The notes under the pieces: generated by a model | What the model was told of the DNA's origin: nothing | The model's database searches: none | The model's input: only the letters and a program-made list of their open reading frames with translations | Assembly: GCF_004120195.1 (NCBI RefSeq) | Contig: NZ_SCHN01000006.1 | Location: 1-64,000 of the forward strand | Reading direction: 5' to 3' | Length of the DNA stretch: 64,000 nucleotides | Origin: Enterovibrio baiacu | Lineage (GTDB): Bacteria; Pseudomonadota; Gammaproteobacteria; Enterobacterales; Vibrionaceae | Position numbers and translations under genes: made by a program | In this document: piece after piece, positions 1 to 4,480 of the stretch | How positions within the stretch are numbered: the stretch's first letter is position 1 | How the letters are laid out: each line of letters starts with the position of its first letter

Positions 1-9
1 TAACGAATG

Positions 10-22
10 ACATGGATCCCCC
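10..22 (+). repeat. Left subterminal inverted repeat of the IS1111 element
   Basis: ACATGGATCCCCC lies four to five bases inside the left end. Its exact reverse complement is at 1335-1347. Confidence 0.85.
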
Positions 23-72
23 TTCATGTGGATTTTCCACACTTAGGTGTCTTTTTCAAAACCGGAGGTTCC

Positions 73-1095
73 ATGTCTTCTTTAATCTTTTGCGGCGTTG
101 ACCTTGCCAAACACCACTTCTCTTTGCACGCGGTTGATAACCGTGGAAAGGTCATTCTTCACAAATCGGTGTCCCGCGCTAAATTGCTGACTACATTAGC
201 AAATATGCCACCCATGCGTATAGGTCTTGAAGCTTGCAGTGGTGCGCATTATTGGGCGAGAGAGTTCATTCAACTCGGTCATGATGCGCGTATTATGGCG
301 GCGAAATATGTGGGTCCGTATCGTACCAAAGGCAAAAATGACCTTAACGATGCCATCGCTATCTGCGAAGCCGTTCAACGTCCCAACACGCGCTTTGTTC
401 CCGTTAAATCTCCTGAACGCCAAGCCATTTTGGCTATTCACCGAATGCGTGAACATTGGGTACGAGAGCGTACAGCTCTCATCAACCGTATTCGGGCTCT
501 GCTCGCTGAGTTTGGTATTGTTTTCCCCACAGGTCGCGCTGCTATTCATCGCGAAGTGCCACTCATTCTAGAAGCGGCTGAAAACGGGTTACCCGATATT
601 GCACGCGCTGTCTTAGCTGACTGTTTTGAACATCTTCAAACGCTTAATCAGCGCATCAATGAAGCAGAGCAAAGCTTTGATCTTGTTGTTAAAGCCAGCC
701 CCAATGCTATGCGCATCATGAAAGTAAGAGGTATCGGCCCTCAAACAGCAACCGCAATTATCGCCACTATCGGCAAAGGGGAGCAATTTGATTCAGGTAG
801 AGACTTTGCCGCTTGGCTAGGGTTAGTCCCAAAACAGTACTCCACGGGTGGAAAGCCCAGACTCGGGCGCATCACAAAGCATGGTGATAAATATCTTCGA
901 ACCTTGCTCGTTCACGGAGCGAGAGCTGCCATCACTAATATCGGAGAAAAACAGGACAGGCTCAGTACGTGGGGACGGCATGTTCTTGAACGGAGAGGCA
1001 TGAACCGAGCCATTGTTGCGCTCGCCGCCAAGAATGCGCGAATTATTTGGGCACTACTACACAACCAAACCGAATATCAAGACTACGCGGCCTAA
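73..1095 (+). CDS. IS110/IS1111-family transposase (DEDD recombinase)
   Basis: A 340-residue transposase. The N-terminal RuvC-like domain shows the DEDD tetrad at D10 (GVDLAKHHF), E53 (GLEACSG), D90 and D93 (KNDLNDA). The C-terminal Tnp20-type domain has a helix-hairpin-helix stretch around 217-230 (VRGIGPQTATAII), and the catalytic serine is probably S257 in the QYSTGG motif. In this family the protein uses both centres with an element-encoded guide RNA. The start at 73 is preferred over upstream in-frame codons because GGAGG lies just before it and the protein then begins at the conserved MSSLIFCGVDLAK region. The frame is intact, so the element may be active. Confidence 0.93.
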   Translation: MSSLIFCGVDLAKHHFSLHAVDNRGKVILHKSVSRAKLLTTLANMPPMRIGLEACSGAHYWAREFIQLGHDARIMAAKYVGPYRTKGKNDLNDAIAICEAVQRPNTRFVPVKSPERQAILAIHRMREHWVRERTALINRIRALLAEFGIVFPTGRAAIHREVPLILEAAENGLPDIARAVLADCFEHLQTLNQRINEAEQSFDLVVKASPNAMRIMKVRGIGPQTATAIIATIGKGEQFDSGRDFAAWLGLVPKQYSTGGKPRLGRITKHGDKYLRTLLVHGARAAITNIGEKQDRLSTWGRHVLERRGMNRAIVALAAKNARIIWALLHNQTEYQDYAA

Positions 1096-1334
1096 GACAC
1101 AAACCACGTAGAGAAACACCCCAACCGGGTCATTGCAGACGCAGCTGATGAGAATAGGTTAAGACCATTTGCAGAGAGCCTGTTAATGCGGCGGGCACAT
1201 TTGATGCCTTCTAACGAATAAGGCACTGCAACCGCGCAATGTCATCAGGGCCATGACGAGAGTCAGATAAAGGCCGAATGTAGAGCGGCAGTCCATAACG
1301 TATCTCAGAATGTCTTGCGGATGTTTGACGAACG
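1096..1334 (+). ncRNA. Candidate guide RNA (seekRNA/bridge RNA) region of the IS1111 element
   Basis: This noncoding stretch of about 240 bases lies between the transposase stop and the right repeat, where IS1111-group elements encode their guide RNA. CCTGTTAA at 1179-1186 repeats the right flank (1351-1358). TAACGAAT at 1212-1219 repeats the left junction (1-8). The second match is exposed in the loop of a small hairpin, stem GCCTT 1206-1210 and AAGGC 1220-1224. Two independent 8-base matches to the junctions in so short a region are unlikely by chance. The exact RNA ends are not visible; the RNA itself is inference from the family. Confidence 0.62.
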
Positions 1335-1347
1335 GGGGGATCCATGT
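1335..1347 (-). repeat. Right subterminal inverted repeat of the IS1111 element
   Basis: GGGGGATCCATGT is the exact reverse complement of bases 10-22 and sits one base inside the right end of the element. Confidence 0.85.
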
Positions 1348-1348
1348 A

Positions 1349-1467
1349 GCCCTGTTAAGGTGTGAGCAACGCAATACCGATGCTTCCGCATACCACCTTA
1401 AACACTAAACGCAACGCATAGTAAAAATGCCAAGCGTTGCGAATCACTCTTAAACAGATTGTTATGT
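1349..1467 (-). other. attC recombination site (vibrio-type), interrupted by the IS
   Basis: Read on the minus strand from 1467, the site starts with the core ACATAAC (R'') just after the stop codon of the cassette gene and runs to ...CACCTTAACAGGGC at 1349. There the R' core GTTA should follow, but its remainder is at bases 1-5 on the far side of the IS. The two halves pair imperfectly: the GCAACGC and GCGTTGC segments and the flanking CTGTT/AACAG segments form the long imperfect stem with extra bases that is typical of attC. The intact site would be about 125 bp, close to the repeats found in vibrio integron arrays. Confidence 0.85.
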
Positions 1468-1469
1468 GC

Positions 1470-3176
1470 CTATTGCTCAATTAATCTCATAAAGGCTTCA
1501 CACTTTAATGCATCCGATAAATTCAATAAGTCGTTAGGATTACACTTTAATTCATTTTGAATATAGTGTTTCGTTTTGCCTAGAAGCTCTTTACCTGGTG
1601 TAAATTGATCACCGTATTCATCCATCCAGTCCTTAACATAAGAATCAACAAGATCAATATCTGTATGCCCCTTCTTATTCTTACTCAATTCAATTCTGTC
1701 TCTAAGAATGAAGTTAGTTAGCTTCCTTTTCGTCTCCTCTTTGAGCTCTTCCACAAACTCGAAATATTTTCCTTCTAATGTACCTATTTCAGTACCATAA
1801 ATATTGTTCAGATGAACTGGCTGACAGAAATAGTTCTCAACCTCTTGATATTTAGTCATAAAGAACAATAGTTCTCGTTTCTCACAATCTTCGCGGAGCT
1901 TTATCACCTCACGATCACTGTCAGTTTTTTGGTCCCTATCAATATGAACAATGACTTTAACTCCAGGTATTTGCTTCCTAACAAATCCTTGTAGGATTTT
2001 TGCAAAATCTACCTTTGTACAGCCTTCATAAGAGTGCAAAACAAATTCATTTTCATTAAGTCCATTGGCTAATAAAAACTTCTTTAGAAATTGTTTTTTC
2101 TCTGAAATATTATCAACTTTATCTTCAGTAACAATGATGTACTTTAGCTCTTTCTTAGAGAATAAGTAGTCGGCGTCAGCTGCACCTATATCTAACAATA
2201 TGTTACTACCTTTCACACCAGAAATAGCGGCTCCTTTCTGAAAGTGAACAACATTCGATTGCCCTTCCAAAGACTCAAGTATGTATCTTGAGTGGGTCGA
2301 AAATACAATTTTCAAGTCAGGATTATTATGTGTCCGTTTAACCAACTCCTCTGATAGCAACTTCTGCTTCGTTGGATGGATATGAGAGTCTGGTTCATCA
2401 AGTAAAATTATCTTAGGGTTGAAGTATTCTATGTATGCAAAAATCTGAACTACTTGCAGTAAACCTGTGCCGACTGAATCTAGCGGTAGTTCAACTTTAC
2501 CATTCTTAACATATACGTATATAAACTCTGAAGTATGCTCATCAAATTCAACTCTAAAGTCGATATTTTGATAAATTGCGTTGACTGAAGCCTTAAACGC
2601 ATTCCATTTTTCAAGATCACCACTAATTGTATACAGTATATTTCTTAAGTAATTGTTACTATCACCGCGAGTAGCTGATTTTTTTACGGCTATAGCGACC
2701 TCAAACTTTTCGTAAATAGGGATACCAGCAATACCTGGAACATAAACGCAATAAGGTTTTTCTATTTCACTTAAAGAGTCACCTAAAACCTTCCCAGTAA
2801 GCATAGTTGTAAAACCACCATTCTTACCTCGCGAGACTTGCACTGTTGAAGAATTTCCGTTGTCAAAAGAGAACTTGATCCAAGGGCGATCACCTCTTCT
2901 TTTTGCTCCGGACAATGGCTTTCCATGGTATAGATACGCTATATCACTAGTTGGAGTATATAAATACTCACTTGAATCAAGAGAGAGTGTTTTGGTTTCT
3001 CCTTTAACCCACTTACCTTTTTTCAACTTCAGAGTCTGACAACTAGATACTGCAAATTGAATCCCTTGAATAAAACTACTTTTTCCTGAATTATTTGTTC
3101 CAATAAAGACGTTAAGCGGAGCCAAGTCGAGTTCAACGTTATCAATCTTTTTGAATTTTTCTATTTTAATTTTCAT
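1470..3176 (-). CDS. ATPase-TOPRIM (OLD-like) nuclease, first integron cassette; probable defence protein
   Basis: A 568-residue protein with an SMC/ABC-like ATPase half and a TOPRIM half. The Walker A motif is at G26-S34 (GTNNSGKSS), a signature-like helix lies near 232-245, Walker B is ILLDEPD at 257-263 and the switch histidine is H295 (STHSRY). The TOPRIM part has the glutamate at E351 (IIVTEDK) and acidic pair D413/D415 (HIDRD), followed by VENYF at 446-450. This order fits class 1 OLD nucleases; fused PARIS-type (AriA-AriB) or DUF4435-containing proteins are alternatives. It occupies the first cassette, is transcribed away from attI and ends 3 bases before its attC. It is clearly richer in A+T than the core genes. 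No strong Shine-Dalgarno sequence is seen before the start. A defence role is inference from family and setting. Confidence 0.85.
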   Translation of the reverse strand: MKIKIEKFKKIDNVELDLAPLNVFIGTNNSGKSSFIQGIQFAVSSCQTLKLKKGKWVKGETKTLSLDSSEYLYTPTSDIAYLYHGKPLSGAKRRGDRPWIKFSFDNGNSSTVQVSRGKNGGFTTMLTGKVLGDSLSEIEKPYCVYVPGIAGIPIYEKFEVAIAVKKSATRGDSNNYLRNILYTISGDLEKWNAFKASVNAIYQNIDFRVEFDEHTSEFIYVYVKNGKVELPLDSVGTGLLQVVQIFAYIEYFNPKIILLDEPDSHIHPTKQKLLSEELVKRTHNNPDLKIVFSTHSRYILESLEGQSNVVHFQKGAAISGVKGSNILLDIGAADADYLFSKKELKYIIVTEDKVDNISEKKQFLKKFLLANGLNENEFVLHSYEGCTKVDFAKILQGFVRKQIPGVKVIVHIDRDQKTDSDREVIKLREDCEKRELLFFMTKYQEVENYFCQPVHLNNIYGTEIGTLEGKYFEFVEELKEETKRKLTNFILRDRIELSKNKKGHTDIDLVDSYVKDWMDEYGDQFTPGKELLGKTKHYIQNELKCNPNDLLNLSDALKCEAFMRLIEQ

Positions 3177-3514: not shown

Positions 3515-4480
3515 ATGAAATCGCCTTTTCTACGCGCCATAAGCGAGTTTATGTATTCTCGTCACTACGCAAAACGGACTGTAGACACTTATCTCTATTG
3601 GATAAAGATCTTCATCATTCATAACAAAATGAAACACCCCAATGATATGGGAGACGTTGAGGTTGAATTGTTTCTTACCTATTTAGCAAACGATAGGAAT
3701 TTATCAGTAAAAAGCCAATCCATCGCTCTAAATGCATTGGTTTTTCTTTATCGACATTTTATTCGCAAGCCCCTTGCGGGAAATTTGACTTTCAATAAAT
3801 CCAATAAAGCGCCTAAGCTTCCAGTCGTTCTTACAAAAGGCGAGATTGTTCTGCTATTTCAACATCTCCCTCCAAGCTTTAACCTTCCAGTGAAAATGAT
3901 GTATGGAAGTGGGCTTCGGGTCTCGGAGATGTTACGGCTAAGAATGCAAGATATTGATTTTGATTATTACTCAGTTCTGATATGGCAAGGTAAAGGAAAT
4001 AGAAACCGACGTGTCACACTCGCAAAAGAGCTTGTTCCACTAATCAGAAATCAAATGTCCGTTGTCGAAAAATACTTTGAAAGTGACTTATCTAATCCCA
4101 GCTACAGTGGTGTTTGGTTACCAAACGCGTTAACCAAAAAATACTCATCAGCGAGTCAACAGCTTGGCTGGCATTTTTTGTTCCCCTCTCATAAACTTTC
4201 TGTTGATCCTGCTTCGGGTTTCATTCGACGCCATCATATAGACGAAACCACAGTACGAAGAGCGATAAAGCACGCCGCAAAAGAAGCTAACATCGGGAAA
4301 TCAGTTAGTTGTCACACACTGCGTCATTCATTCGCAACGCACCTGCTTGAAGCTGGGGCGGATATCAGAACCGTTCAGGAGCAGTTAGGGCATTCTGACG
4401 TTCGGACGACACAAATCTATACACATGTTTTGAATAGTGGCGCCAATGGCGTGATCAGTCCGCTGTCTCGATTAGGTTAA
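3515..4480 (+). CDS. intIA: Chromosomal integron integrase IntIA (tyrosine recombinase)
   Basis: A 321-residue XerC/D-type tyrosine recombinase, almost the length of Vibrio cholerae IntIA. The N-terminal SAM-like DNA-binding domain covers about 1-85 and the catalytic domain about 100-315. Catalytic residues visible are R135 (GSGLRVSE), K160 (WQGKGNRN), H267 and R270 (CHTLRHSF), H293 (LGHSD) and Y302 (IYTHV). The stretch between about 195 and 245 (GVWLPNAL through FIRRHHIDE) is the extra segment that separates integron integrases from XerC/D and binds folded attC hairpins. The C-terminus NGVISPLSRLG is typical. The gene diverges from the cassette array and carries a LexA box. It lies next to fumarase, not next to the rplT block usual in vibrios. 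Confidence 0.96.
   Translation: MKSPFLRAISEFMYSRHYAKRTVDTYLYWIKIFIIHNKMKHPNDMGDVEVELFLTYLANDRNLSVKSQSIALNALVFLYRHFIRKPLAGNLTFNKSNKAPKLPVVLTKGEIVLLFQHLPPSFNLPVKMMYGSGLRVSEMLRLRMQDIDFDYYSVLIWQGKGNRNRRVTLAKELVPLIRNQMSVVEKYFESDLSNPSYSGVWLPNALTKKYSSASQQLGWHFLFPSHKLSVDPASGFIRRHHIDETTVRRAIKHAAKEANIGKSVSCHTLRHSFATHLLEAGADIRTVQEQLGHSDVRTTQIYTHVLNSGANGVISPLSRLG

What the first reader, a model, noticed from the sequence alone, without database searches (positions are those of the whole stretch)
1..1360. IS1111-attC element with readable guide-RNA segments matching its own insertion site
Seen: the 3' noncoding region carries CCTGTTAA (1179-1186), identical to the right flank (1351-1358), and TAACGAAT (1212-1219), identical to the left junction (1-8). 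The second is displayed in the loop of a hairpin (stem GCCTT/AAGGC, 1206-1224). Known: IS110/IS1111 elements use a programmable guide RNA that pairs with donor and target. Inference: these are the target-binding guides, and they explain why the element chooses attC cores. A natural attC-aiming guide RNA is a compact system for study.
Basis: partly seen in the sequence, partly recalled or inferred. Interest (0 to 1): 0.82.

Follow-up and report, generated by a model that had tools for sequence, protein, structure and literature searches.

The report
Bridge-RNA transposon sitting in an integron
A small bacterial jumping gene carries its own guide RNA that leads it to one fixed spot in the gene-capture sites of integrons; this way of working is already known, but related copies show which parts of the RNA read the target and which read the transposon's own ends.

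Summary
The element is an IS1111-family insertion sequence (6-1348, 1343 bp) in an attC end beside an integron integrase, in a Grimontia-like Vibrionaceae. RNA-guided attC targeting by this group is published (seekRNA of ISKpn4/ISPst6; PMC11187229). The quoted strings are real. TAACG at 1212 is a genuine left-target guide. CCTGTTAA at 1179 is not the right guide: of 51 sites whose element carries it, 6 hold it in the flank. The true right guide overlaps it on the other strand: TTAATGCGGCG (1183-1193), complementary to CGCCGCATTAA. Over 45 transposase clusters both target guides track their own flanks (0 of 10,000 permutations); the same-strand reading does not. The proposed hairpin is poorly supported; covariation favours an internal target loop with one guide on each side. 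A second internal loop carries two donor guides that covary with the IS ends, so the RNA looks like a full two-loop bridge RNA with guide order reversed from IS621. Insertions prefer the attC subtypes that fit their guide, also against intact sites in the same genomes. Known kind, new member, with comparative evidence for an IS1111 donor loop.

The parts
6..1348 (+). IS1111-family insertion sequence, 1343 bp, AATGACATGG...CCATGTA
   Evidence: ends from copies in different sites and intact sites
1..5 (+). left target flank TAACG; G5 is the one-base core
   Evidence: left flank of 51 of 54 elements carrying guide TTAATGCGGC
1349..1360 (+). right target flank GCCCTGTTAAGG, 3' end of an attC read on this strand
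   Evidence: identical beside the second copy, then the two sequences part (L003)
73..1095 (+). DEDD transposase, 340 aa if it starts at 73
   Evidence: PF01548, PF02371; NF033542 IS110 family RNA-guided transposase, 358.9 bits, cut-off 140
10..22 (+). left subterminal inverted repeat ACATGGATCCCCC
   Evidence: 13 bp, 0 mismatches
1335..1347 (+). right subterminal inverted repeat GGGGGATCCATGT
1155..1301 (+). bridge/seek RNA region as aligned
   Evidence: alignment A2, 26 sequences; 22 pairs in 5 helices
1169..1231 (+). stem 1169-1174/1226-1231 that closes the target loop (added by hand)
   Evidence: 4 of 6 pairs with compensatory changes, 82.7% of cells paired
1178..1224 (+). target-binding internal loop: lower stem 1178-1181/1221-1224, upper stem 1194-1197/1205-1208
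   Evidence: upper stem 99.0% paired, 3 of 4 pairs compensatory
1183..1193 (+). [quoted passage not shown]
   Evidence: own 6.67 vs permuted 4.60, 0 of 10,000; exact partner is the flank of L005 and L029
1212..1216 (+). left target guide TAACG, pairs with the bottom strand
   Evidence: own 5.78 vs permuted 4.45, 0 of 10,000
1232..1288 (+). donor-binding internal loop: lower stem 1232-1235/1285-1288 (added by hand), upper stem 1249-1252/1272-1275
   Evidence: upper stem 99.0% paired, 2 of 4 pairs compensatory; lower stem 90.4%
1239..1245 (+). right donor guide ATGTCAT, complement of left IS end ATGACAT (7-13)
   Evidence: own 2.49 vs permuted 1.43 of 3 variable bases, 0 of 10,000
1278..1283 (+). 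left donor guide ATGTAG, identical to right IS end plus core (1344-1349)
   Evidence: own 6-mer (last 5 bases of the IS plus core) found exactly in 44 of 45 clusters; own 5.96 vs permuted 4.52, 0 of 10,000
1325..1330 (+). TTGACG, likely -35 of the circle-junction promoter; -10 would be TA(1347-1348)+G+AAT(6-8), spacer 16
   Evidence: read from the sequence, not tested; that such a junction promoter exists is stated in PMC11187229
1349..1471 (-). remainder of the interrupted attC
   Evidence: aligned with five intact sites of other genus genomes, L229-L232 and L234; inner end at 1471 judged by eye
1470..3176 (-). cassette gene next to the integrase, AAA/OLD-like ATPase, 568 aa
   Evidence: PF13304, PF13175; that it is the first cassette is inferred from position, attI was not searched
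3515..4480 (+). integron integrase
   Evidence: TIGR02249, 449.3 bits, cut-off 265

Best explanation
An IS1111-attC-group insertion sequence encodes, downstream of its transposase, a two-loop bridge RNA. [quoted passage not shown] The joint target is TAACG-CCnnnTTAAG, one end of attC, so the element enters at one place and in one orientation. In the second internal loop 1239-1245 pairs with the left IS end and 1278-1283 with the right IS end plus the core base. Transposase and RNA would join the IS ends into a circle, whose junction would make a promoter for transposase and RNA, and then recombine the circle into an attC. Shown here: guide-flank and guide-end tracking, stem covariation, intact target sites in relatives, site preference. 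Inferred: expression, processing, binding and catalysis, by analogy with ISKpn4/ISPst6 and IS621.
For: Target guides follow own flanks in 45 clusters from 109 elements: right guide 6.67 vs 4.60, left guide 5.78 vs 4.45, both 0 of 10,000; the 22 non-attC clusters alone also 0 of 10,000. Donor guides: right 2.49 vs 1.43, left 5.96 vs 4.52, 0 of 10,000 each. Structure: 91.8% of cells paired vs 81.1% shuffled; 58 compensatory cells vs 15.4 (0 of 500); slid controls at most 45.1%. Retuned sisters: L095 TGTGCTCAG with flank CTGAGCACA, L099 TTAGCTTGG with CCAAGCTAA, L102 TTAATTGGG with CCCAATTAA. Site choice against all intact sites in the same 21 genomes: GCA/GCG at the variable triplet in 15 of 25 insertions vs 54 of 201 intact sites (Fisher 0.002; within-genome permutation 0 of 20,000); CAA in 0 of 25 vs 47 of 201 (0.003; within-genome 0.002).
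Against: No RNA evidence. The window copy's right flank fits its guide imperfectly (7 Watson-Crick, 2 G-T, 1 mismatch of 10), and the window copy itself is not in the tracking test because its left flank is cut. In 8 of 45 clusters (L028, L067, L074, L085, L119, L121, L155, L171) the longest right-guide run is only 4; in L045, L053 and L086 it falls in the left-guide segment (TAACG), not in the right guide. Single-sequence folding is unremarkable (z -0.58, -0.26). No Rfam family reaches its threshold in the window. Relatedness inflates permutation and shuffle contrasts. RNAalifold itself paired the two donor guides with each other and columns 89-92 with 160-163; I replaced these with the closing stem and the donor lower stem by hand. 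An 82-nt RNA of ISEc11 was enough for movement (PMC11187229), so the donor loop may be dispensable.
Confidence: 0.87

Rival explanations
1. One reading: both guides match the same strand as the flanks (CCTGTTAA and TAACGAAT), the second shown in a GCCTT/AAGGC hairpin.
For: Both strings are present; the hairpin appears in the single-sequence fold; its covariation score (0.260) is reached by only 13 of 500 shuffles and slid versions pair less (35.4-54.0%).
Against: CCTGTTAA does not track flanks. Hairpin cells pair no better than shuffled (79.2% vs 79.6%) and two pairs fail in 12 of 26 sequences. Its two arms are also arms of the two stems of the internal loop, which keep pairing in at least 92.3% of cells.
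Confidence: 0.04
2. The RNA reads the target only. The IS ends are recognised by the protein through the subterminal inverted repeats, and the donor-guide resemblance reflects common descent.
For: PMC11187229 reports an 82-nt short seekRNA of ISEc11 as sufficient and says that which domain binds the ends is not known.
Against: Donor guides track own ends beyond permutation, also within the 22 non-attC clusters and, for the right donor guide, within the 23 attC-type clusters; the left donor guide includes the target-derived core base in 44 of 45 clusters.
Confidence: 0.12
3. The element recognises the folded single-stranded attC, as the integron integrase does (recalled), and guide matches are secondary.
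For: Targets lie at one end of attC.
Against: Two copies in this genome share only the 12-nt right end GCCCTGTTAAGG and then lie in different sequences; relatives with other guides sit beside sequences that match those guides, L106 for example.
Confidence: 0.04

Closest known systems
IS1111-attC group: ISKpn4, ISPst6, ISPa25 (seekRNA; PMC11187229, Siddiquee 2024)
   Same: IS1111-type transposase, downstream noncoding region, subterminal inverted repeats, insertion at one end of attC, top-strand guide 5' of bottom-strand guide
   Different: another member, in a Vibrionaceae genome; donor guides and a second loop are supported here; the published guide letters are in figures or supplements I did not see, and no sequence of these elements was compared
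IS110-family bridge RNA, IS621 (PMC11208160, PMC11208158)
   Same: two internal loops with left/right target and left/right donor guides that pair with bottom/top strands
   Different: RNA downstream rather than upstream of the gene, reversed guide order, 13-bp subterminal inverted repeats, one-base instead of CT core
IS1111 bridge RNAs predicted for ISPa11 and others (PMC11208160, section 12 and Extended Data Fig. 10 legend)
   Same: potential donor-binding nucleotides noted by manual inspection
   Different: there described as a multi-loop in many IS1111; here a simple internal donor loop with a covarying upper stem and a covariation test

Membership tests
IS1111 family | transposase with N-terminal DEDD_Tnp_IS110 and C-terminal Transposase_20 domains | tested here: met
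   D10, D90, D93 invariant and E53, S257 nearly invariant in 12 sequences
IS1111 family | subterminal inverted repeats | tested here: met
   13 bp perfect
IS1111 family | longer noncoding region downstream of the gene | tested here: met
   253 nt downstream, 67 nt upstream if the gene starts at 73
IS1111-attC group | insertion at a fixed point and orientation in attC | tested here: met
   10 of 51 sites of guide-TTAATGCGGC elements depart from GCCnnnTTAA
seekRNA systems | top-strand-complementary guide 5' of bottom-strand-complementary guide | tested here: met
   1183-1193 before 1212-1216; tracking
seekRNA systems | RNA co-purifies with the transposase and is essential for movement | not testable with these tools
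   needs experiment
IS110 bridge RNA (IS621 type) | separate donor-binding loop with two donor guides | tested here: met
   comparative evidence only
IS110 bridge RNA (IS621 type) | CT core dinucleotide at both junctions | tested here: not met
   window junctions share only G (TAACG|AATG, ATGTA|GCC). A script that looked for a one-base core before AATG found it in 123 of 127 elements; since it searched for that base, this is not an independent test
IS110 bridge RNA (IS621 type) | RNA encoded in the left (5') end | tested here: not met
   RNA lies 3' of the transposase gene

The most novel reading that the evidence does not exclude
IS1111 elements, the attC group included, use a complete four-guide bridge RNA, so their ends are read by RNA and not only by protein. 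Lineages of attC-hunting elements have partly divided the attC subtypes among themselves by retuning one 10-nt guide: guide ..TGC.. is enriched at GCA/GCG sites and absent at CAA sites, sister guide ..TTGG.. was found at CAA (4 of 10) but not at GCA/GCG sites (0 of 10), and both use CTG sites.
Probability: 0.7. Interest if true: 0.55.

Novelty: new member of a known kind. Interest (0 to 1): 0.4.

Why it matters
Target guidance in this group is published, so the central claim is not new. What is useful is that many natural copies with known flanks give a covariation test of both loops. It fixes which strand each guide pairs with, corrects the first-stage model, and speaks to an open point between the two 2024 reports: whether IS1111 RNA also reads the IS ends. 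The link between guide subtype and attC subtype makes natural retargeting within integrons measurable.

Tried and rejected
Rejected: CCTGTTAA as guide; the GCCTT/AAGGC hairpin; the left flank read antiparallel (own 3.89 vs permuted 3.96); my first idea that CCATGACG (1251-1258) is the left donor guide, dropped on looking at the alignment because that stretch varies and looks like a hairpin arm, in favour of 1278-1283.

Inconclusive: handshake-type extension beyond the core. Three bases after the left donor guide vs right flank, 767 of 10,000; the first base alone 0 of 10,000 over 44 clusters but 293 of 10,000 in the 22 non-attC ones. Three bases after the right target guide vs left flank, 714 of 10,000 (17 clusters); the first base alone 11 of 10,000, and 279 of 10,000 in the 11 non-attC ones.

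No match or not held: Rfam at gathering thresholds. No intact TAACGCCnnnTTAAG in the window's own assembly, so empty sites were shown in relatives. I did not obtain ISKpn4 or ISPst6 sequence. Tetu & Holmes 2008 is not held; Post & Hall 2009 was not looked for; both are known to me from citations in PMC11187229 and from recall. AlphaFold and structure-library searches were not used.

Rows dropped: of 164 transposase hits 123 passed the end rule; most of the 41 others had ends the script did not recognise. In 4 of the 127 with both ends recognised no base fitted the rule (L151, L174, L176, L177); in L174 and L176 the base is shared but the left end does not begin AATG. Of the 123, 109 were used; 14 were dropped: 7 records that duplicate a fetched genome, 4 with cut left flank (the window copy as L001 and L004, L156, L167) and 3 without anchors. 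The structure alignment holds the window plus 25 of 33 de-duplicated attC-type segments; left out were L005 (replaced by the window) and L039, L096, L119, L120, L121, L122 and L125, chosen by eye. The first background of 150 intact sites was a capped list without genus g12, from which many of the insertions come; I replaced it by all 201 listed sites of 21 genomes that carry the insertions. Of 33 fetched copies in those genomes 25 entered: 6 have a flank of another form, 2 repeat a site key.

Full report
What was checked. The element is an IS1111-family insertion sequence at the very start of contig C6 of a 5.37-Mb assembly (the contig has 514,989 bases). The transposase (73-1095) has the DEDD and Transposase_20 domains and fits the NCBI model for IS110-family RNA-guided transposases. 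The genus includes the genome of Grimontia celer: L107 and G003 hold the same copy at the same coordinates. It lies near an integron integrase (3515-4480); the only long gene between them is an AAA/OLD-like ATPase (1470-3176), so I take the interrupted attC to be that of the first cassette. This is inferred: attI was not searched and no attC model was run.

Where the IS ends. Full-length copies in other places show variable sequence up to TAACG on the left and from GCC... on the right. Intact sites in relatives read TAACGCCCTGTTAAGG (L229, L230, L231, L234) or TAACGCCGCATTAAGG (L232) and continue like the window's right flank. So the IS is 6-1348 and one base (G) is common to both junctions. 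A script that looked for such a base before AATG found it in 123 of 127 elements with both ends recognised; because it searched for that base, this is a description rather than a test. A second copy of the IS in the same genome, seen as two ends on contig C2, has the same 12-nt right flank GCCCTGTTAAGG and then a different sequence. Which left flank belongs to which copy cannot be told from this assembly.

Does the right guide track flanks? In ten full-length copies of the genus (window included) the noncoding region is nearly constant around 1179-1193 (one base differs, in L007) while right flanks read GCCCTG, GCCGCA, GCCGCG or GCCTTG plus TTAAG. CCTGTTAA is therefore not copied from the flank. 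Of 51 distinct sites whose element carries CCTGTTAATGCGGC, the window copy not among them, 6 hold CCTGTTAA in the flank. The reverse complement does fit: TTAATGCGGCG (1183-1193) is complementary to CGCCGCATTAA, the exact flank of L005 and L029. This is the order and strandedness that PMC11187229 reports for IS1111 seekRNAs: top-strand complement first, bottom-strand complement second (abstract, passages and sections 9, 10, 13 and 14 seen). For the window copy the fit is 7 Watson-Crick pairs, 2 G-T pairs and 1 mismatch of 10.

Permutation test. From 164 transposase hits in 186 loci, 123 passed the end rule, 109 were used, and 45 clusters at 90% transposase identity were formed. The window copy is left out (left flank cut); L005, 97% identical in transposase, stands for it. 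Longest exact match, own flank vs permuted: right flank antiparallel 6.67 vs 4.60 (0 of 10,000); left flank same strand 5.78 vs 4.45 (0 of 10,000). The 22 other clusters give 7.32 vs 4.78 and 6.00 vs 4.32 (0 of 10,000 each). Examples: L106 CTGATTTGATC, L150 CGAAGTACCA, L134 CGCCGGACG, L142 CGGAGCGAA. Against: 8 clusters (L028, L067, L074, L085, L119, L121, L155, L171) have a longest right-guide run of 4 only, and in L045, L053 and L086 the longest run lies in the left-guide segment. Relatedness among clusters is not removed by the permutation.

Structure. RNAalifold on 26 sequences gives an internal loop, not a hairpin. The lower stem is CCT/AGG. The upper stem GGCA/TGCC changes on both sides in 5 to 7 sequences per pair at three of its four pairs. 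The right guide lies on the 5' strand of the loop and the left guide on the 3' strand. RNAalifold also paired columns 106-108 with 153-155 (the two donor guides with each other) and 89-92 with 160-163; I left these out and put in a closing stem (15-21/89-94) and a donor lower stem (95-98/160-163) after looking at the same alignment, which favours them. The resulting 22 pairs in 5 helices are paired in 91.8% of cells (shuffled 81.1%), with 58 compensatory cells (shuffled 15.4, sd 3.5; 0 of 500); sliding the partners gives at most 45.1%. The number of further pair types (19) does not exceed the shuffles (20.2, 424 of 500). Its arms are also arms of the two loop stems, so part of its signal is shared.

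Donor loop. The second internal loop carries ATGTCAT (1239-1245), complementary to the left IS end, and ATGTAG (1278-1283), identical to the right IS end plus core. Both covary with the ends: three variable bases 2.49 vs 1.43 matches, and last five bases plus core 5.96 vs 4.52, each 0 of 10,000; the first also holds within the 23 attC-type clusters (2.52 vs 2.00, 0 of 10,000) and both within the 22 others. The right donor guide fits in 1 of 3 bases only in L116, L088 and L041. The own 6-mer of the left donor guide is found exactly in 44 of 45 clusters. Durrant et al. (PMC11208160; section 12 and passages seen) noted potential donor-binding nucleotides by manual inspection of six IS110/IS1111 elements, ISPa11 among them, in many IS1111 in a multi-loop. 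Siddiquee et al. describe target matches and an 82-nt RNA of ISEc11 that suffices for movement, and state that which domain binds the IS ends is not known. The data here favour a donor loop but do not show that it is needed.

Guide type and attC type. Fifty-four used elements carry TTAATGCGGC, at 51 distinct sites; 41 have the form GCCnnnTTAA, 10 do not. Two of these 10 (L048, L080) show little resemblance to the target and have what looks like transposase coding sequence on the right, so they are probably rearranged. At the 41 sites the triplet is GCA or GCG in 24 and CAA in 0. Against 150 intact sites from a capped family list that omits genus g12 (42 GCA/GCG, 21 CAA) Fisher gives 4e-4 and 0.009. 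Against a matched background, all 201 intact TAACGCCnnnTTAAG sites in the 21 g12 genomes from which 33 copies had been fetched, GCA/GCG is 15 of 25 vs 54 of 201 (0.002; within-genome permutation 0 of 20,000) and CAA 0 of 25 vs 47 of 201 (0.003; within-genome 0.002); counting only the six commonest attC-like triplets, as I judged them, 15 of 22 vs 54 of 133 (0.02) and 0 of 22 vs 47 of 133 (3e-4). CTG/TTG, which fit the guide with one mismatch and two G-T pairs, are not avoided (7 of 25 vs 25 of 201). Some of the 201 are likely chance matches rather than attC. A sister group with guide ..TTGG.. is at CAA in 4 of 10, CTG in 4 of 10 and GCA/GCG in 0 of 10, without a matched background. Copies are not independent and not every copy of these genomes was fetched.

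Mechanism and protein. The profile of 12 transposases matches ISCro4 (9t56) and IS621 (8wt6) in the PDB by sequence. D10, D90, D93 (invariant) and E53, S257 (nearly invariant) are the likely counterparts of the IS621 catalytic D11, D102, D105, E60 and S241 named in PMC11208158 (passages); this assignment is by order and spacing, an inference. TTGACG at 1325-1330 and TA-G-AAT across the circle junction, 16 bp apart, would make a promoter in the circle; such junction promoters are stated in PMC11187229.

Novelty. Targeting of attC by an RNA-guided IS1111 element is published. In the searches made (listings and abstracts, apart from the three papers named) I saw no paper on donor guides in the attC group or on guide subtypes matched to attC subtypes, but the library lacks preprints and most subscription journals, and supplements were not seen.

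Noticed in passing
L011/L025 (G014, the same two copies), L012, L023, L032 (G015): Solo left ends of this IS, about the first 253-269 bases. In L011/L025, L012 and L032 they are followed by a shared module that ends in GGCTGCTAACGCAGCC (or a variant)...CATATGTGTTA or similar. A genus search shows the last ~100 bases of that module at many other places, so fusion with a dispersed repeat is likelier than a heritable scarred attC.
   Followed up: partly
L002 295-1799 (G000 contig C2): Right beside the second copy's left end lies a tandem array of a 371-bp unit, 4.1 copies, 94% matches, consensus starting CGTTATCC; possibly an amplified cassette.
   Followed up: no
window 1470-3176: Cassette gene next to the integrase: AAA/OLD-like ATPase with partial matches to many defence ATPase models (NsnB, AriA, GajA, PtuA, Old). 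A defence role is possible, not shown.
   Followed up: partly
window genome G000: No intact TAACGCCnnnTTAAG in the assembly, while 15 of 18 genus genomes have at least one: targets may be few or occupied here, or lost in assembly gaps.
   Followed up: no
L007, L009: Two relatives have a 16-column insertion in the target loop; their left guide reads TAACGCC and matches the target across the core.
   Followed up: no
L048, L080: Right flank of these copies reads GAGGAATGAACCGAGCAATAGTGGCACTT, which looks like transposase coding sequence, a sign of nested or recombined IS copies.
   Followed up: no
G216:C2, G247:C2: Dense runs of intact attC-type ends (44 and 39 TAACGCCnnnTTAAG sites in these two genomes) in genomes that also carry copies of this IS group: good natural arrays for counting insertion preference.
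   Followed up: partly
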